Shown here piece after piece: positions 6,250 through 17,422 of a stretch of 64,000 nt of DNA; the stretch's first letter is position 1, and every line of letters starts with the position of its first letter. The stretch spans positions 186,001 to 250,000 of the forward strand of contig NZ_FMZU01000001.1 of NCBI RefSeq assembly GCF_900101545.1. Reading direction: 5' to 3'. The translations under genes and the position numbers were made by a program. This DNA comes from Variovorax sp. CF079 (GTDB lineage Bacteria > Pseudomonadota > Gammaproteobacteria > Burkholderiales > Burkholderiaceae_C). The notes beneath the pieces are model-generated. The model ran no database searches. It saw nothing but the letters and a program-made list of their open reading frames with translations, and had not been told where the DNA came from.

Positions 6250-6296
6250 ATCGCTCGGAGCTTGCCACAGGCGGGAGGGTTCCCTCCGCGCCCGGC

Positions 6297-8398: not shown

Positions 8399-9190
8399 TC
8401 AGAGCGGCAGATCGCCGGCTTCTTTGCCGAGGTACTTCTTCGACAGGGCGTCGAGCGTGCCGTCTTTCTTGGCGGCCGCGATGATCTCGTTGACCTTGGC
8501 CTTCAGCGCGTCCTCGCCCTTGGCGATGCCGACGAAGCAGGGGCTGTCTTTCAGCAGCAGCTTGTACTCGGCGCCGAGCTGCGGGTTCTTCTGCATCATG
8601 TTGCCGGCCACCGCAGCGCTGGTGGCGATGGTTTGCGTCTGGCCCGCGACGAAGGCCGCGATGGTCGCGTTGTTGTCCTCGAAGCGCTTGTAGTCGACGT
8701 TGGCCGGCGCCACCTTGGCGAGCTCCTGGTCTTCCATGGCGCCGCGCGTCACGGCCACCGACTTGCCGCCCATGTCGGCGAAGCTCTTGATGCTCAGGCT
8801 CTTGGCGGCGTACACGGCCTGGAAGAAGGGCGCGTAGGCGGCGCTGAAGTCGATCACCTTTTCGCGCTCGGCGTTCTTGCCCAGCGTGGAAATCACGAGG
8901 TCGGCCTTCTTGGTCTGCAGATAGGGAATGCGGTTGGCGCTGGTGACCGGCACCAGCTCGACCTTGACGCCCAGCTTGGCGCCGATCAGCTTGGCCATCT
9001 CCACATCCAGGCCCTGCGGCGCCATGTCGGGGCCGACGAAGCCGTAGGGCGGGTAGTCGGTGGGAACCGCGACCTTGAGGGTCTTGGACTTGAGCACGTT
9101 GTCGAGCGCGCTCTGGGCCTGGGCGGCACCGCAGGCGAGCAGCGCGGCCGATGCCAGGGCCAGCGCGAATTGGCGTTTGGAAAATTTCAT
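8399..9190 (-). CDS. Amino acid ABC transporter substrate-binding protein
   Basis: A 263-residue periplasmic binding protein of the SBP_bac_3 family. A signal peptide (ALALASAALLACGAAQAQ) precedes the mature domain, which opens with LKVAVPTDYPPYGFVGPD and contains GLDVEMAKLIGAKLG and KADLVISTLGKNAEREKVIDFS. These are hallmarks of polar amino acid receptors. A strong AGGAG ribosome binding site lies inside the end of the GntR gene, and the start overlaps the GntR stop by four bases. Ligand identity is unknown. Confidence 0.93.
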   Translation of the reverse strand: MKFSKRQFALALASAALLACGAAQAQSALDNVLKSKTLKVAVPTDYPPYGFVGPDMAPQGLDVEMAKLIGAKLGVKVELVPVTSANRIPYLQTKKADLVISTLGKNAEREKVIDFSAAYAPFFQAVYAAKSLSIKSFADMGGKSVAVTRGAMEDQELAKVAPANVDYKRFEDNNATIAAFVAGQTQTIATSAAVAGNMMQKNPQLGAEYKLLLKDSPCFVGIAKGEDALKAKVNEIIAAAKKDGTLDALSKKYLGKEAGDLPL

Positions 9191-9960
9191 AACAGGGCTC
9201 CTAGGTAGGTCGATGAATCGGGATCACGCAAAAGCTGTGCCTTGGTCTTGTCGTCGGCAGGCGCGTGGCGCAGCGGTGCGAGCGCGTCGCGCAACTGGGC
9301 CAGCGGGTCGGTGGGGTGCTGCACGCGCAGCGCGGACTGCACCGTGCCGATGTGCTCGGTCATCAGCGCCTCGGCGCCAGCGGTGTCGCCGCGCTCCAGC
9401 GCCGCGACGATGCGCACGTGGTCCTCGCAGGACTGCGCCGCGTCGTGCGAGGACTGGTAGAGCATCGCGATCAAGGTGGTGCGCGCGGTGAAGTCGCGCA
9501 GCGTGTCGGCCAGAAGCGAATTGCCCAGACACTCGGCCAGGCAGACGTGGAAGTCGCCCAGCAGGTAGCTGCGGTTGCCGATGTCGCTGTCCTTGAGGGC
9601 GGCCTTCTCGCGCTTCAGATGTGCCTTGAGCGCGCGCAGGGCCTCCTTGTCGATCGGGCCGGCGCTGCGGATCAGGCCCGACTCGATCACGCGGCGCGCC
9701 TCGAAGGCTTCGCGCGCCTCGGCCTGCGAGGGCTCGATCACGAACCAGCCGCGGCGTGCGCTCACGGTCACGATGCCGCGCGCCGCCAGCCGCGTGAGCG
9801 CCTCCCGCACGATGGTGCGGCTGCAGTCGAACAGCATCGCGAGTTGCTGCTCGCCCAGGCGCGAGCCGGGGGCGAGCTTCTGCGCCATCACCGCTTCAAC
9901 GATGCGCGCACTGATCTCGGGAGCGGAAATGGCCATGGCTTGCATATCAGCAGTTTTCAT
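9187..9960 (-). CDS. GntR-family (FCD) regulator of the ABC operon
   Basis: A 257-residue GntR regulator of the FadR/FCD class. The N-terminal winged HTH includes GSRLGEQQLAMLFDCSRTIVREALTRLAARG. The C-terminal FCD ligand domain has the DFHVCLAECLGNSLL stretch and the EDHVRIVAALERGD metal or ligand histidine region. It leads a five-gene operon with the amino acid importer and probably represses it until its amino acid or a metabolite binds. Three in-frame ATGs (9960, 9945, 9936) are possible; the first is used. A dyad at 9960-9975 overlaps that start and suggests autoregulation. Confidence 0.9.
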   Translation of the reverse strand: MKTADMQAMAISAPEISARIVEAVMAQKLAPGSRLGEQQLAMLFDCSRTIVREALTRLAARGIVTVSARRGWFVIEPSQAEAREAFEARRVIESGLIRSAGPIDKEALRALKAHLKREKAALKDSDIGNRSYLLGDFHVCLAECLGNSLLADTLRDFTARTTLIAMLYQSSHDAAQSCEDHVRIVAALERGDTAGAEALMTEHIGTVQSALRVQHPTDPLAQLRDALAPLRHAPADDKTKAQLLRDPDSSTYLGALL

Positions 9961-9975
9961 GCCAACTGGTATGCA
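9960..9975. promoter_or_regulatory. Candidate GntR operator
   Basis: An imperfect dyad TGCCAACTGGTATGCA (10 of 16 positions symmetric) lies at the start of the gntR gene, in the 130-base gap before the divergent histidine kinase. GntR/FCD regulators often bind short TGGTAT-type dyads at their own promoters. A second TGTGCACCA half-like element follows at about 9981-9989. Assignment rests on position only. Confidence 0.35.
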
Positions 9976-10090
9976 AGATCTGTGCACCAAATCGGGTGCT
10001 TGGCCCCCGGTTTGGTCAGGCTGACCGTCGGAAACGGCCGTTTTGGGTGCATCGCTCCGGCAGAATGCGGTCGATGTCGTGGAGTCCAGA

Positions 10091-12592
10091 GTGAACAGGC
10101 CTTTTCGTGTGCGAGTGCTGTTGACCGGGGCGGTGCTCGCGCTTGGGCTGTTCTTGACCTTTGCCGCGGCGCGTTTGCAACAGCAGAACATCGACGCAGC
10201 CACCAGGGCAAAGTTTGAGCGCCAGGTGGAACTCGTTGAAGCAGAAATCGAGCGGCGGTTCCGGCAGCCGGTGCATGGACTCAATGGAGCGCGCGGGATC
10301 TTTGCCGTCCATCCGGCAGTCAGCAGAAACGCTTTTCGCGCCTACGTGAACTCCCGCAACCTGCAGGAGGAGTTTCCTGGTGTCCGTGGATTCGGCTTTG
10401 CTCAGCGTGTGAGCCGGGACGACTTGCCCGATTTCGTCGCCGCCGAGCGACGCGACGAAGCTCCCCATTTCACCGTGCGGACTGTCGGCAATGCGCCCGA
10501 TCTGTACGTGATCAAATTCCTTGAACCCGTCGCGATCAGCCAACCGGCTCTGGGGTACGACATCGGGTCCGAAAGCACGCGCAGACAAGCGATCGAGCGT
10601 GCCGTGTCGACAGGGAGCCCCACGCTCAGCGGTCGCATCTTCCTGCAATCCGAAAGACAGCGCCCTGGCTTCCTCTACATGACGCCGGTGTATCGAAGCG
10701 GGAAGGATCCTGGCGTCATGCAACAGCGTCAGGCCGAATTGCTCGGGTTGCTGTTTTCCCCCATCGTGGCCGAAGACCTGCTCGCTGGCAGCGCGGGCGG
10801 CTCGGATCGGCAGATCGACTTTTCGTTGTACGACGGAGATGCGGAGCCTGGCAATCTTCTCTTCGCCAGCAAATCTCTTGCTGGCACTCCCGGGGGGAGC
10901 ACTCTGCACGCCGACGAAGGCACTTCGCGCAAGGCCGTGCAAGAAATGACCACGCGGCTGCCGATCGGTGGCAGGCAGCTGACCCTTCGCGTGAACACCA
11001 CGCCCGCCTTCGAGCACGACCTGGATCGCTGGATTCCGACGTCATTGCGCGTGGGCGGCGTGCTCGTGAGCCTTTTGTTGGCGCTCACCATGTGGTTGCT
11101 TGCCACAGGACGCGCACGTGCCTACGCACTGGCACAAGCTATGACGACCGATCTGGAGCGACTGGCGGCTGTCGTGCGGCACACCTCCAATTTGGTGGTG
11201 ATCACCGATCGGGATTGCAAGATCCAGTGGGTCAATGACGCGTTCGCGAGCTTCTATGGCTATACGTTCGAAGATGCGCGCGGTCAAACACCGCTTCAGC
11301 TTCTGGGCAGCGGCAGGACCGATCCCGAGACTTACGCCGTCATGAATCGCGCTGCCGAGGCGCAGACGAGCTGTCGCGTCGAAGTCGTCAATCGATCGAA
11401 GGACGGGACGCACCACGCCATCGAACTGGAGGTGCAGCCCCGCCACGACGCCCAGGGTCGCTTGACGGGATTCATGGAAATCGGCCTTGACGTCACCACC
11501 CGAAAACACGCTGAAGAGCAGCTGCGCCGCAATCACGCGATGCTGAAAAGCATCATGGAGAACCTGCCTTGTGGCCTGAGCGTGTTTGACGGCCAACTGC
11601 ATCTCGCCGCCAGCAATCAGCAGTTTCGCGAGCTGCTCGATCTGCCGGACGAACTCTTTTCAGGGCGATCGGTTCGCTTCGAGGACGTGGTTCGCAACAA
11701 CGCCGCGCGAGGCGAGTACGGCCCCGGACCTGTCGAGGACATCGTGGCTGGAATGCTCGAACGTGCGCAGTATCCGACGCGCATGTTGTTCGAGCGAGAG
11801 CGGCACGACGGCAAACCGCTCGAAGTGCGCAGTGCACCGATGCCTGGAGGCGGGTTCGTCACGACCTACATGGACATCTCGGAGCGAAAGAAGATCGAGC
11901 GGATGCAGCACGAGTTCATCTCGACCGTCTCGCATGAACTGCGTACGCCGCTGACGGCGATCTACGGTTCGCTCAGCCTGCTGGGTTCGGAAACGGCGGG
12001 TCCGCTGCCGCCCGATGTCCAAGAGCTTGTCGCCGTCGCACACAAGAGCTGTGAGCGATTGATGCGCCTGATCAGTGATGTCCTCGATGTCGAGCGTATC
12101 CAGGCGGGGCTGATGCACTACGCGAAATCAAGGCAAGCGCTGGCGCCGCTCGTCGACCAGGCCGTTGGCGCCATGCGGGCCTATGCCGATCAGTTCCACG
12201 TATCGCTCGAATTTGAAAGCCGTCTCGACAATCTGTACGTCGAAGTGGACCCGGACCGCATCGTTCAAGTCCTGGTGAACCTCATTTCCAACGCGGTCAA
12301 GTTCTCCAGGCCCAACCATCCGGTATCCGTTCGGATGTCCATGGTCGACGGGCAAATCCGTGTCGGCGTGTCGGATCAGGGTATCGGGATCCCGGCGGAG
12401 TTCCGCCCGCGAATCTTCGATCGATTTGCTCAAGCCGATGGGTCGGACCGTCGAGCACAAGGGGGAACCGGTCTTGGCCTGAACATCTGCAAGAGCATCG
12501 TCGAGGCCCACGGCGGGCGTATCGACTACATCAGCACCGTGGGTGTCGGCACGGAGTTCTTCTTCGACCTGCCTGGGGTTTCCGGCCCCTGA
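10091..12592 (+). CDS. CHASE-PAS-PAS sensor histidine kinase
   Basis: An 833-residue membrane hybrid-free histidine kinase. An N-terminal membrane segment (VLLTGAVLALGLFLTFAAA) is followed by a periplasmic CHASE domain (about 50-290, including GLNGARGIFAVHPAVSR and FPGVRGFGFAQRV). A second membrane segment (VGGVLVSLLLALTMWLLATG), two PAS domains, a HisKA helix with SHELRTPL (His615) and an HATPase domain (NLISNAVKFS, VSDQGIGIP, GGTGLGLNICKS) complete it. No receiver domain is fused. The GTG at 10091 has GGAG seven bases upstream; a TTG at 10043 is the alternative. It ends 10 bases from the convergent glycosyltransferase operon, whose lone receiver (15794-16189) is its likely phosphorylation partner. 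Confidence 0.92.
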   Translation: MNRPFRVRVLLTGAVLALGLFLTFAAARLQQQNIDAATRAKFERQVELVEAEIERRFRQPVHGLNGARGIFAVHPAVSRNAFRAYVNSRNLQEEFPGVRGFGFAQRVSRDDLPDFVAAERRDEAPHFTVRTVGNAPDLYVIKFLEPVAISQPALGYDIGSESTRRQAIERAVSTGSPTLSGRIFLQSERQRPGFLYMTPVYRSGKDPGVMQQRQAELLGLLFSPIVAEDLLAGSAGGSDRQIDFSLYDGDAEPGNLLFASKSLAGTPGGSTLHADEGTSRKAVQEMTTRLPIGGRQLTLRVNTTPAFEHDLDRWIPTSLRVGGVLVSLLLALTMWLLATGRARAYALAQAMTTDLERLAAVVRHTSNLVVITDRDCKIQWVNDAFASFYGYTFEDARGQTPLQLLGSGRTDPETYAVMNRAAEAQTSCRVEVVNRSKDGTHHAIELEVQPRHDAQGRLTGFMEIGLDVTTRKHAEEQLRRNHAMLKSIMENLPCGLSVFDGQLHLAASNQQFRELLDLPDELFSGRSVRFEDVVRNNAARGEYGPGPVEDIVAGMLERAQYPTRMLFERERHDGKPLEVRSAPMPGGGFVTTYMDISERKKIERMQHEFISTVSHELRTPLTAIYGSLSLLGSETAGPLPPDVQELVAVAHKSCERLMRLISDVLDVERIQAGLMHYAKSRQALAPLVDQAVGAMRAYADQFHVSLEFESRLDNLYVEVDPDRIVQVLVNLISNAVKFSRPNHPVSVRMSMVDGQIRVGVSDQGIGIPAEFRPRIFDRFAQADGSDRRAQGGTGLGLNICKSIVEAHGGRIDYISTVGVGTEFFFDLPGVSGP

Positions 12593-12602
12593 GCGGCCGG
12601 TC

Positions 12603-14009
12603 TCATTGACCCTTCCAGTGGGCCTTGCGCTTCATCGTTCCCCAGCGGGCCTTGTGCCGCACGGCCCATCGAACCAGCCCAATGAATCTCCAGGTCGTGT
12701 TGAGCTGACGATAGCCGAAGTTTTCCAGAAGAGCGACCAGGCCCAGCAGCGCCACTTGCCGAAGCTTCGGGTACAGATGGAAAGACATCTCCTCGAGCAA
12801 GAGGCCTGATGCTGAAAGCAGGACGCCCAATCCCAGCGCCAGGAACATGAATGCGCCGAACGCGGCCCAAGAAACCAGCCCCTGCAGGGCTGCAAAAAGC
12901 AGGAGGACGCAGCCGGCGACTTCGATCAAAGGTCCCAGCCATTCAAACAGGACCATGAATGGAAAAGCAAGCCATCCGGGTGCCCCGCCGCGCGAGCTGA
13001 ACATCAGGCCCCAGTTGCTGGTGAGGCTTTCGCAGAGGCCATGCTGCCATCGGATGCGTTGGTTTCGCAAGGTGGCCAAGTCTTCCGGGGCCTCGGTCCA
13101 GCAAACGGGCTCCGGGACGAATTCCATCCGGTAGGGCTGGCCGCGCTGGCGCAGGATGCGGTGCATGCGCACCACCAGTTCCATGTCTTCGCCGATGGTC
13201 CGCGTTCGGTAGCCACCCACTTCAACCACGGTGTTCGTGCGAAACAGCCCGAATGCGCCGGAGATGATCAGCATGGCGTTCAACTGTGACCACCCGAGCC
13301 GTCCGAACAGGAACGCGCGCAGGTATTCCACCACTTGGCAGAGTGCCAGGAAGTTGCGCGGCAACGCGACGCGTGTCAAGACGCCGTCTTGCACTTCGCA
13401 ACCGTTCAATATCCGCACCGTTCCCCCGCTCGCCACCATCCGGGGATCACGCAGGAATGGTTTGACCACCCGCTGCAGGCTGTCTCGCTCGAGCACGGAG
13501 TCGGCATCGACGCCGCAGAACAACGGATAGCGTGCGGCGTTGATGCCTGCGTTGAGCGCATCCGCCTTTCCGCCGTTTTCCTTGTCTACCACGCGCAGGT
13601 TGCGAAAGCGCGGGGAACGATAGACCGCACGTATCGGTGCGGTCTGGAGGCGCAGTCGATAGCTTTCGGGGAACGGGACGAGCGAAAACTCCTGCACCAG
13701 CATTTCCAGGGTCGCATCGCTCGAACCGTCATTGATGACGATCACCTCGAACTCCGAGTAGGTCAGCTGAAGCATGGAGCGCACCGACGCCGCGATGCTG
13801 GCCTGCTCGTTGAAGGCCGGCATCAGGATGCTGATGGCCGGCTCCAGTCCGGAGTAGATTTGCGGCAAGTCATCGAGCAGCTTGGCCTGGTTGTCCCGGT
13901 GGAGCCTGACGAGGCTCAGGAAATTGAGCGCGAGATAGGAACCGTTCAGCAGAACGAAGTAGCCAAAGATGAACCACGTCGCGAGTTCAACGATCAGCTG
14001 CTGTGTGAT
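12603..14009 (-). CDS. GT2 membrane glycosyltransferase (non-canonical start)
   Basis: A roughly 468-residue processive-type family 2 glycosyltransferase of the PgaC/BcsA/YaiP kind. One N-terminal membrane segment precedes the catalytic domain, with ISILMPAFNE, INDGSSD (D94), GVDADS (D168, D170), the acceptor-base motif GEDMEL (E274-D275) and the product-binding QRIRW motif (317-321). About three to four membrane segments follow. No ATG, GTG or TTG lies near the family start. Candidates are ATC at 14009, six bases after a GAGG Shine-Dalgarno, or CTG at 13997, overlapping the HEAT gene stop as CTGA. The operon context with a YaiO barrel points to exopolysaccharide synthesis. Confidence 0.85.
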   Translation of the reverse strand: MTQQLIVELATWFIFGYFVLLNGSYLALNFLSLVRLHRDNQAKLLDDLPQIYSGLEPAISILMPAFNEQASIAASVRSMLQLTYSEFEVIVINDGSSDATLEMLVQEFSLVPFPESYRLRLQTAPIRAVYRSPRFRNLRVVDKENGGKADALNAGINAARYPLFCGVDADSVLERDSLQRVVKPFLRDPRMVASGGTVRILNGCEVQDGVLTRVALPRNFLALCQVVEYLRAFLFGRLGWSQLNAMLIISGAFGLFRTNTVVEVGGYRTRTIGEDMELVVRMHRILRQRGQPYRMEFVPEPVCWTEAPEDLATLRNQRIRWQHGLCESLTSNWGLMFSSRGGAPGWLAFPFMVLFEWLGPLIEVAGCVLLLFAALQGLVSWAAFGAFMFLALGLGVLLSASGLLLEEMSFHLYPKLRQVALLGLVALLENFGYRQLNTTWRFIGLVRWAVRHKARWGTMKRKAHWKGQ

Positions 14010-15058
14010 AGGAGACCTCGTTCGGCAAAGACATGATCGAGCGCCAGCCGGCCCAACCGATCGTCGCTGAGGCGCTTGAGCCCGTCGAGACTTTCGTGTG
14101 CGAGGAACGGCAGGCTCACCAGCGCATGGGCTGCTCGGTAGCGGACCCACCATTCGCTGTCGCCGAGCATCGCAGCGAGTTGTGGAACGTCTGACGGGAC
14201 GGCCACGTGAGTCAGTGCATGGACAGCCCGCACCCTGACACGCCAGTCGGTGTGCGCCAGATGTGAGAGCACGGCGGGCCGGACAGCGAAGGTATTCACC
14301 AGGCGCAGCGCGGCCGCAATGATGGTGGGCTCTTTCTCCGAGTTGAGCAGGCCCAGCAGCGCAGCGTCGGGCAGTCGGGTGCGCAGCACTTCGAGCAACT
14401 GGAGGCCGCGCAGCTTCTGGGCGGACGGCAGCGCGGCGACCCTTGGAACAAGAAGCGACTCGAATGTGACGCGCGCTTCGCCCAGCATCCGCGCCAGCCG
14501 GGGAATTTCCCAATCCGGGCGATTCAGCACCGACGGCATGAGGTGGTGTGCTCCGGCGATGGGATCGATTTGAATCATCGCCCTGGCCGCGGTCAGCGAT
14601 GCAATGGTTTCTTTGGCTTGGACAACGATCTGCAGCGCGGCCCAGGCCCTGCTATCGCGCAGATGGCCCAGCGTCAACATGGCGAGCAGGCGCTCGGTTG
14701 GATTTCCGTCCCGGAGCAGGCGGCGGGCCAGCTCATCGCAGCGCAGTTGAAGAGCGATCTCGTTCAAACGGACTGTGGCATCGCCACGCAAGGACTCCTG
14801 CATGTAGTTCCACAATTTGAGAAAGGCGACCTGATCTTGCAATCTAAGCGGCGGCAGCAAGTACTGCGCAGGGCCTGACAAGGCACCCAAAAGCGCGGGC
14901 TGCCAAATCGCCTTGAACTCCTTCTGCTCCCTCTCTTGCCGCTTCAGTCGTTCGCGCAGAGCAATGATCAGCCCGGCCAGCACCAGGTTAAGACCCAGCA
15001 CGGCAACTCCGGCGATGAGACTGAAGGCCACCAGCGGCTCAAAAGCTGTATTGAACAC
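13994..15058 (-). CDS. HEAT-repeat membrane protein
   Basis: A 354-residue protein with one N-terminal membrane helix (LVAFSLIAGVAVLGLNLVLAGLIIAL) and a basic, coiled-coil-like linker. The rest is helical hairpin repeats of the HEAT type, such as AMLTLGHLRDSRAWAALQIVVQ, the HTDWRVRVRAVHALTHVAVPSDVPQLAAML pair and GDSEWWVRYRAAHALVSLP. HEAT arrays act as protein-binding scaffolds, so it may hold the glycosyltransferase or the outer-membrane barrel together at the inner membrane (inference). It overlaps the YaiO gene by 20 bases and runs into the glycosyltransferase. Confidence 0.85.
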   Translation of the reverse strand: MFNTAFEPLVAFSLIAGVAVLGLNLVLAGLIIALRERLKRQEREQKEFKAIWQPALLGALSGPAQYLLPPLRLQDQVAFLKLWNYMQESLRGDATVRLNEIALQLRCDELARRLLRDGNPTERLLAMLTLGHLRDSRAWAALQIVVQAKETIASLTAARAMIQIDPIAGAHHLMPSVLNRPDWEIPRLARMLGEARVTFESLLVPRVAALPSAQKLRGLQLLEVLRTRLPDAALLGLLNSEKEPTIIAAALRLVNTFAVRPAVLSHLAHTDWRVRVRAVHALTHVAVPSDVPQLAAMLGDSEWWVRYRAAHALVSLPFLAHESLDGLKRLSDDRLGRLALDHVFAERGLLSHSS

Positions 15059-15797
15059 CGAGTCGAATTCCGCTTCGGGAGTAGAAGGTGCCCTGGCGGA
15101 TTCGCTCCAGCGAGTACGTCAGGGCCCAGGCTGGATCGAACCAGTGCCGACCGGTCAAAGCCACGGTGCGGACGTCCGCCAATACCACGCGCTGCTCGCC
15201 GATCGCAGTCGCCTCCCGACCGGCCGCTAGGATCAGTCCCACGACATTCTTGTCTCCGTAGTAGTAGCTGCCCCGCAACTCGACCCCCTGCGCGTAGGTG
15301 CCCAGCGCTTGAGTTGGCCGCCACGCGACGGACCAGCTGAACGACGACACGTAGCGCTCCAGCCGCACGAGGCCCTGGCGGACCGTGGTGTTGTCATACG
15401 CGGTGGTCTTGAAGCCCCCGTGCAGCAGCCACGCGGGTGCGAACTCGTACTGGATCGCCGCCCCCAGCTCATGCCTGGGCAAGACGCGATGCGAGGGACT
15501 GAAGCTTGCTTCCATCGAGGCGACGAAGCGCGGGTCGAGCGGCACTGTGTAGGCCAGACCGGCCGAGGTGTCGTCAAGGCCGAACCGGTCTGTCCGCCTG
15601 ACATTCATGGAGAGGAGTTCGCGCGGGCCGTACGCGCGGGCGACCCGCAGCGACGTTTCCCGCCAGTCCGCGAATCCCTTGCTCAATGATTGGTGCTCGG
15701 CCGCGACTTCGATCGAATCCCCGTGATCGACGGGTCCGGCCCAGGCGGCGACGAGTGGCCCGGCAAACAGGATGCCGGCGACCGCACCACGCCTCAC
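15039..15797 (-). CDS. YaiO-family outer-membrane beta-barrel protein
   Basis: A 252-residue exported protein. A signal peptide (AVAGILFAGPLVAAWA) is followed by alternating beta strands ending in GIRLGVQYSF, with the terminal Phe typical of outer-membrane barrels. Stretches such as LSKGFADWRETSLRVARAYGPR, GSYYYGDKNVVGLILAAGREAT and LTGRHWFDPAWALTYSLER match the YaiO family. E. coli YaiO is an outer-membrane protein encoded next to the glycosyltransferase YaiP, the same pairing seen here. A role as export pore or envelope partner of the polysaccharide is inferred. It overlaps the receiver gene by four bases. Confidence 0.85.
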   Translation of the reverse strand: MRRGAVAGILFAGPLVAAWAGPVDHGDSIEVAAEHQSLSKGFADWRETSLRVARAYGPRELLSMNVRRTDRFGLDDTSAGLAYTVPLDPRFVASMEASFSPSHRVLPRHELGAAIQYEFAPAWLLHGGFKTTAYDNTTVRQGLVRLERYVSSFSWSVAWRPTQALGTYAQGVELRGSYYYGDKNVVGLILAAGREATAIGEQRVVLADVRTVALTGRHWFDPAWALTYSLERIRQGTFYSRSGIRLGVQYSF

Positions 15798-16189
15798 GAG
15801 GGTGCCTTTGCGTACCGGCGAACGCGCGCCAGCAGTTCGTTGGGAGCGAATGGCTTCTGGACGTAGTCGTTGGCACCTGCATCCAGCGCCCGCACCACGT
15901 CCTGCTCTTGCGCCTTGGCACTCAGCATCAAAATGGGGACGGACCGCCAGGTGATGCTGCCGCGGATCAGCCGGATGAGTTCGAAGCCGTCCACGAAGGG
16001 CAGCATGACGTCGAGCAAGGCGATGTGCGGCGGCGATTGAGCTTCGATGAACTCCTTGGCCTTGCGGCCGTCCCGCGCCAGGGCAACCTTGTACTGCTCC
16101 CGCTCCAGCATGAACTTCAACAGGTACGCAATATTCTCATCGTCCTCAACAACGAGAACCGAGGCCTGCTTCGTAGTCGGAAGGTTCAT
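15794..16189 (-). CDS. Single-domain response regulator
   Basis: A 131-residue CheY-type receiver with no output domain. The acidic pocket is E15-D16-D17, the phospho-acceptor D60 (IALLDVMLP), the switch residue S90 (LMLSAKAQE) and K112 (YVQKPF). It is the first gene of the YaiO-HEAT-GT operon, so phosphorylation probably regulates polysaccharide synthesis by protein contact, not DNA binding. The convergent CHASE kinase is the obvious donor. Confidence 0.93.
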   Translation of the reverse strand: MNLPTTKQASVLVVEDDENIAYLLKFMLEREQYKVALARDGRKAKEFIEAQSPPHIALLDVMLPFVDGFELIRLIRGSITWRSVPILMLSAKAQEQDVVRALDAGANDYVQKPFAPNELLARVRRYAKAPS

Positions 16190-16401
16190 AAGAGATGGCG
16201 GATGTTTGGATCAGCGCTTGCAGTGGACGTCGATCTTCCAGCGATGGAAATTCTCCGCAGATTGTGCGGCCAAATAGCGCCCTCGCGCGCTGTCCGAAGC
16301 GCGCGCGAGTCGCGGCTCGCATTGCGAGTCCGCCGACGTGGAACACCGAGTTCCAGGGTAACGTCGAAATGAAAACTAATGCGCTATCTGCGACTCAACA
16401 C
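16190..16401. other. Intergenic region upstream of the receiver operon
   Basis: A 212-base region between the Bug receptor's stop and the receiver start, both on the minus strand. A GC-rich hairpin with arms 16282-16290 and 16301-16309 (CTCGCGCGC type) could end the Bug transcript, but only a weak T-run follows on the minus strand. The operon promoter should lie here; I cannot assign clear -35/-10 boxes. Confidence 0.4.
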
Positions 16402-17367
16402 CTAGTCCATCTTTGCACCGGAGGCCTTGACTGCCTTTTCCCAGCGCGGGGTTTCAACCGCGAGGAACCTTGCGAAGTCCTCGCTATCGAGGAAAGCTGG
16501 GTCGGCGCCCTGACTCACCATACGATCACGCACCTCGGGGCTGGTTAGCACCTGCTTGAAGGCGTCGCTGAGCTTGGCCACCACGTCCTTCGGCGTGCCG
16601 GCCGGCGCAAGAAAACCGTAGAAGCCGACCACCTCGAAGCCCTTGATGCCGCTCTCGATCACGGTCGGGATATCGGGCAAGGCGGGATTGCGCGCGGCGC
16701 TGGTGACCGCGAGCGCGCGCACCTTGCCCTGCTTGTGATAGTTGGCTGCCTGCGGGATCGACTCGGCCATGAACTGGACCTGGCCGCCCATGAGGTCGGT
16801 GAAGGCCGGCGCGCTGCCGCGGTAGGGGATGTGGACCATGAAGAGGCCGGTGGCGGTCTTGAACATCTCCGGCACCAGGTGGCTGATGCCGCCGTTGCCG
16901 GCCGAGCCGTAGTTGATCTGCCCCGGGCGTGCCTTGGCATAGCGCACGAACTCCTGCAGGCTGTTGACCGGCAGCTTGGGCGTGACGAGCAGCGCCAGCG
17001 GCTGCATCGCGGTGCGCGCGATCGGCGTGAAGTCCTTCAGCGTGTTGTAGGGCAGCTTGCTGTAGAGCGCCCCGTTGATCACCGCCACGCCCGTGTTCGC
17101 CAGCATTAGCGTGTAGCCGTCGGCCGGACTCTTGGCCACCGCGTCGGCGCCCACCGATCCGCCCGCGCCGGGCTTGTAGTCGACCAGCACCGGCTGGCCG
17201 AGCACGGCCTGCAGCTTGTCGGTGAGCAGGCGCGCGTGCTGGTCCAGCGGACCCCCGGCCGGAAAGCCGATCACGACCTTGATGGGTTTTTCCGGAAAGG
17301 CGGCGGTGGCGTGGGCCGACGCCGCCATCCAAAAGGCCGCGATGAGCGTCCTGGTGCTGCTGTTCAT
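16402..17367 (-). CDS. Bug/TctC-type tripartite tricarboxylate receptor
   Basis: A 321-residue periplasmic substrate-binding protein. The ATG at 17367 is used because GAGGAG lies at good spacing before it; a longer frame adds no signal. A signal peptide ends near SAHATAAFP. The mature protein shows the family marks KVVIGFPAGGPLDQHARLL, VDYKPGAGGSVGADAVAKSPADGYTL and LVTPKLPVNSLQEFV. These receptors are highly expanded in Comamonadaceae and Burkholderiales. The TctA/TctB membrane partners are not in the window, so it is an orphan receptor and its ligand is unknown. Confidence 0.93.
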   Translation of the reverse strand: MNSSTRTLIAAFWMAASAHATAAFPEKPIKVVIGFPAGGPLDQHARLLTDKLQAVLGQPVLVDYKPGAGGSVGADAVAKSPADGYTLMLANTGVAVINGALYSKLPYNTLKDFTPIARTAMQPLALLVTPKLPVNSLQEFVRYAKARPGQINYGSAGNGGISHLVPEMFKTATGLFMVHIPYRGSAPAFTDLMGGQVQFMAESIPQAANYHKQGKVRALAVTSAARNPALPDIPTVIESGIKGFEVVGFYGFLAPAGTPKDVVAKLSDAFKQVLTSPEVRDRMVSQGADPAFLDSEDFARFLAVETPRWEKAVKASGAKMD

Positions 17368-17422
17368 GTTCGTCTCCTCGTTGTGGCGGACGATCATAAA
17401 CAGCGGCCCGCCGCCGCAGGCT

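What the first reader, a model, noticed from the sequence alone, without database searches (positions are those of the whole stretch)
10091..16189. A two-component-controlled YaiO/HEAT/GT2 locus, a candidate undescribed polysaccharide system
Seen in sequence: four minus-strand genes (receiver 15794-16189, YaiO barrel 15039-15797, HEAT membrane protein 13994-15058, GT2 enzyme) overlap each other end to end, and a CHASE-PAS-PAS kinase converges from the other side ending 10 bases away. Known: E. coli yaiO and the glycosyltransferase yaiP are neighbours of unclear role, and lone receivers can act by protein contact. Inference: a single-domain receiver phosphorylated by the CHASE kinase gates glycan synthesis, with the HEAT protein as inner-membrane scaffold and YaiO as outer-membrane partner. 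There is no PgaA/B or BcsC-type factor, so export would differ from known systems.
Basis: partly seen in the sequence, partly recalled or inferred. Interest (0 to 1): 0.75.

Follow-up and report, generated by a model that had tools for sequence, protein, structure and literature searches.

The report
Kinase-linked surface polysaccharide synthase block
A compact five-gene block in a soil bacterium looks like a machine that makes and exports a sugar polymer and is probably switched by a phosphorylated receiver protein; its core genes recur side by side in very distant bacteria, and we found no description of it.

Summary
In detail: four overlapping minus-strand genes (receiver, YaiO barrel, HEAT membrane protein, GT2) meet a CHASE-PAS-PAS kinase tail to tail, 10 bp apart. 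(1) It is one block: a congener lacks window 9991-16395. (2) Among the 80 nearest GT relatives, from nine phyla, HEAT directly precedes GT in 71 and a receiver precedes HEAT in 74. In an even sample of 274 class genomes all 14 GT genes sit beside HEAT, but a receiver is there in only 6 of 13 checked. (3) Profiles made without the window rank this kinase first of 43 and this receiver first of 68 matches in its own genome. (4) YaiO is absent from 9 of 9 Bacillota/Actinomycetota genomes that keep receiver-HEAT-GT, as expected of an outer-membrane exporter; 27 of 50 YaiO proteins carry TPRs. (5) One Spirochaetales GT is fused to an Hpt domain. Best reading: a synthase-dependent polysaccharide system gated by phosphotransfer through receiver and HEAT protein. 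Product and gating contact are unproven. Novelty: new variant of a known kind.

The parts
9991..16395 (.). Whole block, absent at this site in six compared congeners; sharpest edges given by L132
   Evidence: blastn of window against L132-L137: in L132 window 9990 and 16396 are 18 bp apart; the other five have less sharp edges
10091..12592 (+). Sensor histidine kinase: two hydrophobic stretches around a CHASE domain, then PAS_4, PAS_7, HisKA, HATPase_c
   Evidence: Pfam; first of 43 matches in the own genome for a profile of linked kinases made without it; hydropathy
12603..13997 (-). GT2 membrane synthase, 464 aa if it starts at CTG; NDGS, DAD, GEDME, QRxRW
   Evidence: Pfam, alignment of 30 relatives, profile match to hyaluronan synthase over positions 12-413, start
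13994..15058 (-). HEAT-repeat protein: long N-terminal helix 7-60 with one hydrophobic stretch, then 17 solenoid helices
   Evidence: Pfam PF13646, AlphaFold2 model pLDDT 95.4, hydropathy
15039..15797 (-). YaiO-family 14-strand outer-membrane barrel, no TPR in this copy
   Evidence: TIGR04390 158.8 bits, model pLDDT 92.0 with 14 strands, structure comparison
15794..16189 (-). Single-domain receiver, 131 aa, phospho-acceptor D60, no output domain
   Evidence: Pfam, alignment of 75 receivers, first of 68 matches in the own genome for a profile made without it

Best explanation
The block encodes a compact synthase-dependent polysaccharide system under phosphotransfer control. The CHASE kinase senses an outside ligand and phosphorylates the single-domain receiver at D60. 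The receiver has no output domain, so it acts by contact: most likely it docks on the cytoplasmic HEAT solenoid, which is anchored in the inner membrane beside the GT2 synthase, and so switches the synthase on. GT2 polymerises a nucleotide sugar and pushes the chain across the inner membrane; YaiO is the outer-membrane exit. Shown: gene content, presence as one block, conserved neighbourhood, catalytic motifs, a canonical receiver, predicted barrel and solenoid folds, absence of YaiO in Bacillota/Actinomycetota. Inferred: phosphotransfer within this pair, receiver-HEAT-GT contact, direction of control, a polymer as product. My odds: synthase plus export about 0.85; gating by receiver contact about 0.6.
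For: HEAT directly upstream of GT in 71 of 80 nearest relatives, receiver upstream of HEAT in 74 of 80, in nine phyla. HEAT beside GT in 14 of 14 GT genes found in 274 evenly drawn class genomes (13, one weak case). One block, absent from congeners, same five genes at another site in congener G337. Window-free profiles put this kinase (354 against 231 bits) and this receiver (174.5 against 131) first in the own genome. YaiO in 0 of 9 Bacillota/Actinomycetota genomes and 22 of 25 others searched. TPR-YaiO in 27 of 50. GT motifs and hyaluronan synthase profile match. One GT-Hpt fusion. Deacetylase-like, hydrolase-like, sulfatase-family and epimerase genes beside relatives. Precedent of a lone receiver activating a polysaccharide enzyme: EpsW-EpsZ, PMC12802240.
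Against: A receiver was present in only 5 of 12 fetched class-sample loci, so HEAT-GT can work without it. No strong kinase in 36 of 80 stretches, though many are short. Phospho-acceptor D is E in 4 of 75 receivers. Receiver-GGDEF fusions in L072, L077, L080 leave room for c-di-GMP. The GT-Hpt fusion is a single case. No complex was modelled and no product is known; no deacetylase or hydrolase gene lies in the block. The solenoid fold is generic.
Confidence: 0.6

Rival explanations
1. The synthase-export part is right, but the receiver does not touch it: it passes phosphate on to another protein, tunes the kinase, or steers another target, and is in the operon only to be co-expressed.
For: HEAT-GT without a receiver in 7 of 12 fetched class-sample loci. 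Hpt-REC and receiver-GGDEF fusions show the relay can branch. Extra receivers lie in several loci.
Against: The receiver is next to HEAT or YaiO in 74 of 80 nearest relatives, has no output domain of its own in the window, and in L071 the GT itself carries an Hpt domain.
Confidence: 0.25
2. The GT makes a short or lipid-linked glycan or modifies an envelope component, and YaiO is an envelope protein that does not export a polymer.
For: No product is known; the window has no deacetylase, hydrolase or TPR part; the YaiO fold is shared with fatty-acid and small-molecule channels such as TodX and FadL.
Against: QRxRW-type motifs and a profile match over most of hyaluronan synthase, best E. coli match PgaC, TPR-YaiO and polysaccharide-enzyme neighbours in relatives.
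Confidence: 0.13
3. The neighbourhood is a local accident of this strain.
For: Only 5 of 101 congeners have the HEAT gene.
Against: Synteny in nine phyla and 14 of 14 in an even class sample; the genes travel as a block.
Confidence: 0.01

Closest known systems
PgaABCD (poly-GlcNAc system)
   Same: Membrane GT2 synthase plus outer-membrane barrel; many relatives have TPR-YaiO and a few a deacetylase-like gene
   Different: PgaC 29% over 287 aa and 133 of 422 bits for the PgaC model; HEAT protein and receiver in place of PgaD; no PgaB-like gene in the block
EpsW-EpsZ of Myxococcus xanthus (PMC12802240; abstract and two sections read)
   Same: Lone receiver in polysaccharide synthesis, acting after translation by contact in that system
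   Different: EpsZ is a phosphoglycosyl transferase of a Wzx/Wzy pathway, here a GT2 synthase with a HEAT partner; contact not tested here
NfrBA of E. coli (PMC8669469; passages read)
   Same: GT2 synthase with an outer-membrane TPR-barrel protein, gated at the synthase
   Different: [quoted passage not shown] no such domain found in the five proteins; NfrB gave no blastp hit to the window GT
yaiO-yaiX-yaiP-yaiS of E. coli K-12
   Same: YaiO near a GT2 gene
   Different: YaiP 28% over 224 aa, YaiO 14%; no HEAT or receiver gene in that stretch
XagABCD of Xanthomonas (PMC3609779, PMC3826837, PMC4643136; passages read)
   Same: GT-centred biofilm polysaccharide operon
   Different: No HEAT or receiver gene named in the passages; sequences not compared here

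Membership tests
synthase-dependent polysaccharide secretion system | Inner-membrane processive GT2 synthase | tested here: met
   Motifs invariant in 30 relatives, hyaluronan synthase profile match 12-413; activity itself not testable here
synthase-dependent polysaccharide secretion system | Outer-membrane barrel, usually with TPRs | tested here: met
   14-strand barrel model; TPRs absent in the window, present in 27 of 50 relatives and window together
synthase-dependent polysaccharide secretion system | Exported polymer as product | not testable with these tools
   needs biochemistry
PgaABCD | GT above the PgaC family cut-off | tested here: not met
   133.2 against 422.3 bits
NfrB-type c-di-GMP-gated synthase | MshEN or other known c-di-GMP-binding domain on the synthase | tested here: not met
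   Pfam scan of the five proteins shows none
YaiO family | TIGR04390 and PF19413 above cut-off | tested here: met
   158.8 of 32 and 67.6 of 23.9 bits
EpsW-type control | Single-domain receiver without output domain | tested here: met
   PF00072 only, 131 aa
EpsW-type control | Target is a large monotopic phosphoglycosyl transferase | tested here: not met
   the enzyme in the block is GT2
EpsW-type control | Direct contact with, and activation of, the sugar enzyme | not testable with these tools
   no complex prediction on hand
two-component pair | Kinase and receiver are specific partners | tested here: inconclusive
   strong genomic support; phosphotransfer not testable

The most novel reading that the evidence does not exclude
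An old, cross-phylum class of polysaccharide synthase whose dedicated partner is a membrane-anchored HEAT solenoid that reads the phosphorylation state of a lone receiver (or of an Hpt domain fused to the synthase), so that a two-component relay rather than c-di-GMP gates polymer synthesis directly; YaiO barrels, with or without TPRs, are its outer-membrane exit.
Probability: 0.5. Interest if true: 0.8.

Novelty: new variant of a known kind. Interest (0 to 1): 0.64.

Why it matters
A gene set that ties YaiO to a synthase, and lacks YaiO in the lineages without an outer membrane that were searched, gives the YaiO family a testable job; I saw no stated role for it in the searches made. If the receiver-HEAT step is right, phosphotransfer joins c-di-GMP as a direct switch of synthase-dependent polysaccharides, in bacteria from Variovorax and Massilia to Nitrospira, Halomonas, Solirubrobacter and alkaliphilic Bacillota. 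The 6.4-kb block is small enough to move into a laboratory host.

Tried and rejected
Chance neighbourhood: rejected. XagABCD as the same system: followed as passages in three papers; no HEAT or receiver gene is named there and sequences were not compared, so this is left open rather than excluded. Leptothrix sheath genes: listing only, not followed. A print description of the receiver-HEAT-GT set: nine searches of the open-licence library showed none in their listings; most subscription papers are not held. A further gene shared by all loci: none seen. What recurs is a hydrolase-like family (A8) in Massilia, Nitrospira, Lysobacter and a few others, and another family (A9) in four Bacillota loci; neither is in the block, and A8 found nothing in the own genome (no positive control). 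A9 had no PDB match. HEAT fold: matches are artificial alphaReps, importin-alpha and other solenoids, so the fold tells no function. Receivers with E in place of the phospho-acceptor D occur only in loci without a strong kinase (4 of 30 against 0 of 45, Fisher p 0.023); this is uncorrected, not adjusted for kinship, and some of those contigs are short, so I give it little weight. Limits: the profiles behind searches were built from hits in the same loci, so gene positions are independent evidence but scores are not; L068 and L069 bear the same strain number; the 80 loci are the best of 581 and so biased to near relatives. In one search, 36 genomes matched HEAT at 1e-15: 13 beside GT, one (G225) cut by a contig end, and 22 partial matches, mostly in frames near 800 aa, without GT.
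Full report
What is there. The window lies in a 6.85-Mb assembly, contig C19. Its GT pairs with that of Variovorax soli in the tree, and congener G344 has a contig of the same length, 56,210 bases, as the Variovorax soli record L034, so the genus is most likely Variovorax. Between a GntR/FCD regulator gene (9187-9990) and a TctC gene (16402-17397) sit five genes. On the minus strand: a single-domain receiver (15794-16189), a YaiO barrel (15039-15797), a HEAT protein (13994-15058) and a GT2 enzyme (12603-13997), overlapping each other. On the plus strand a CHASE-PAS-PAS kinase (10091-12592) ends 10 bases from the GT stop. GT has no ATG, GTG or TTG near its start; congener L116 shows the same CTGA overlap with the HEAT stop, so a CTG start by re-initiation is likely (inference).

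It is one block. Six congeners were compared at this site. In L132, window positions 9990 and 16396 are 18 bp apart, so 9991-16395 is the extra piece. The other five also lack it: in four the flanks are 5 to 553 bp apart with window edges between 9168 and 9978 on the left, and in L133 the homology on the left stops already at 6270. In congener G337 (L116) the same order, including the converging kinase, is 78% identical in DNA over 4.7 kb, with flanks that do not match the window. Of 101 congeners, 5 including this one have the HEAT gene at E 1e-40. The four others all have receiver, YaiO, HEAT and GT in order; three of the four have the kinase within the stretch taken, adjacent, about 1 kb and about 6.4 kb away.

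Conservation among nearest relatives. They fall in nine phyla by record title, some being metagenome bins. The HEAT match ends 3-189 bp before the GT match in 71 of 80. In six more (five Nitrospira-type, one Armatimonadetes) it lies 2.1-6.3 kb upstream; in the last three, also of the Nitrospira type, the contig ends first. A receiver lies upstream of HEAT in 74 of 80; the three without one that are not cut (L053, L055, L061) form one well-supported clade, which reads as one loss. YaiO lies between receiver and HEAT in 41, elsewhere in the stretch in 11, and is not seen in 28. A kinase of the same subfamily, 240 bits or more, is in 44.

A sample not chosen by neighbourhood. In 274 genomes drawn evenly from the class, GT was found in 14 at E 1e-70. 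HEAT lies beside it in all 14: 13, one (G268) only by the local profile at 43 bits. In G086 the two genes face each other; in G099 the pair is degraded. Twelve of the loci were fetched: a receiver sits in 5 of 12, and a YaiO domain in 12 of 12, one of them at only 18 bits. With the window that is 6 of 13 for the receiver; G055 was not fetched. So HEAT-GT is the fixed core, YaiO the usual partner in this class, and the receiver frequent but not universal.

Do kinase and receiver belong together? A profile of 20 cluster-linked kinases of other genera, without the window, was run on the own genome: of 43 matches the window's kinase is first with 354 bits, the next has 231. The same with 27 receivers: first of 68 matches, 174.5 against 131. 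The linked kinases share the transmitter but not the sensor: of 42 scanned, 18 match dCache_1, 14 CHASE3 and only the window's CHASE. In Halomonas relatives and Solirubrobacter the kinase gene directly precedes the receiver gene in the same direction. This fits a conserved relay with exchangeable inputs; phosphotransfer itself is untested.

Is there a physical link from relay to synthase? In a Spirochaetales contig (L071) the GT carries a C-terminal Hpt domain, 41.3 bits against a cut-off of 24.6, and a further receiver gene follows at once. It is one case, and fusions were not searched for systematically. In other lineages the receiver is part of Hpt-REC (L018), REC-GGDEF-REC with Hpt (L077, L080) or GGDEF-REC (L072) proteins, with the C-terminal receiver next to HEAT; there c-di-GMP may join in. 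The window's receiver has the residues of a working receiver; over 75 receivers the phospho-acceptor is D in 71 and E in 4.

YaiO and export. The model (pLDDT 92.0) is a 14-strand barrel, close to TodX, Omp33, FadL, OmpG and CymA in a second look at Foldseek's hits (Z 18.8-21.1 over 192-224 residues); that shows a fold, not a cargo. TIGR04390 was sought in 34 of the 80 genomes, 28 of them chosen because their stretch showed no YaiO and 6 as controls with one: 22 have it. The nine Bacillota and Actinomycetota genomes have none (two of these records bear one strain number, and one, L041, is a metagenome bin whose GT groups with proteobacteria); 22 of the other 25 have one. Completeness of these genomes is not told.

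HEAT and GT. The HEAT model (pLDDT 95.4) is one long N-terminal helix and 17 solenoid helices. Its hydrophobic stretch is followed by a positively charged run, so the solenoid should be cytoplasmic (positive-inside rule recalled). GT has NDGS, DAD, GEDME and QRxRW invariant in 30 aligned relatives; its profile matches hyaluronan synthase over positions 12-413 and cellulose synthase in part. In E. coli, PgaC (29% over 287 aa) and YaiP (28% over 224 aa) match and NfrB does not, against 44% or more to the window within the family. Relatives' loci also hold a deacetylase-like gene (Nitrospira, Armatimonadetes; matches below cut-off), a family without Pfam name that matches a deposited 'putative GH97' (10yv, E 6.5e-14) and has an invariant D-x-E, sulfatase-family genes and nucleotide-sugar epimerase-like genes. 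This is the company of a polysaccharide.

How it works. Sensing outside by CHASE, kinase, receiver, HEAT, GT, then YaiO: I put about 0.85 on synthase plus export and about 0.6 on gating by receiver contact. EpsW-EpsZ of Myxococcus is a recent precedent for a lone phosphorylated receiver that activates a polysaccharide enzyme by contact (abstract and sections 11 and 12 read); it differs in enzyme class, and no HEAT partner appears in what I read. NfrB shows the c-di-GMP way to gate a compact GT2-barrel system (passages read). No description of the receiver-HEAT-GT set appeared in the nine searches of the open-licence library.

Verdict. A real and widespread variant of synthase-dependent polysaccharide systems, undescribed as far as these searches reach. 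The unit and the pairing are well supported; the contact step and the product are open.

Noticed in passing
L071:7932-9656: GT2 of this family with a C-terminal Hpt domain in one open frame, followed at once by another receiver gene.
   Followed up: partly
L077:5154-6809, L080:5211-6857, L072:5552-6811: Receiver next to HEAT is fused to GGDEF, with Hpt in L077 and L080, a possible joint phosphorelay and c-di-GMP input.
   Followed up: partly
L007:9454-11124, L033:5631-7355, L023:6365-8005, L053:13212-14168: Family without Pfam name beside the GT with an invariant D-x-E, matching a deposited 'putative GH97'.
   Followed up: partly
L081:4268-6415, L065:2933-5365, L077:1-1467, L080:2-1483: Another unnamed large family near the cluster in four Bacillota loci; the motifs look like a glycoside hydrolase to me, but no library match was found.
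   Followed up: partly
L004, L005, L007-L011, L013-L017, L038, L054 (Massilia and kin): YaiO is missing between receiver and HEAT, yet each of these 14 genomes has a TIGR04390 match outside the stretch held.
   Followed up: partly
L022, L033, L040, L065: Receivers with E in place of the phospho-acceptor D; none has a strong kinase in the stretch.
   Followed up: partly
window 13994-13997: Likely CTG start of GT in a CTGA overlap with the HEAT stop, shared with congener L116; other congeners have ATG.
   Followed up: partly
L107 (G099): HEAT-GT pair in decay: a stop inside GT and only a HEAT fragment.
   Followed up: no
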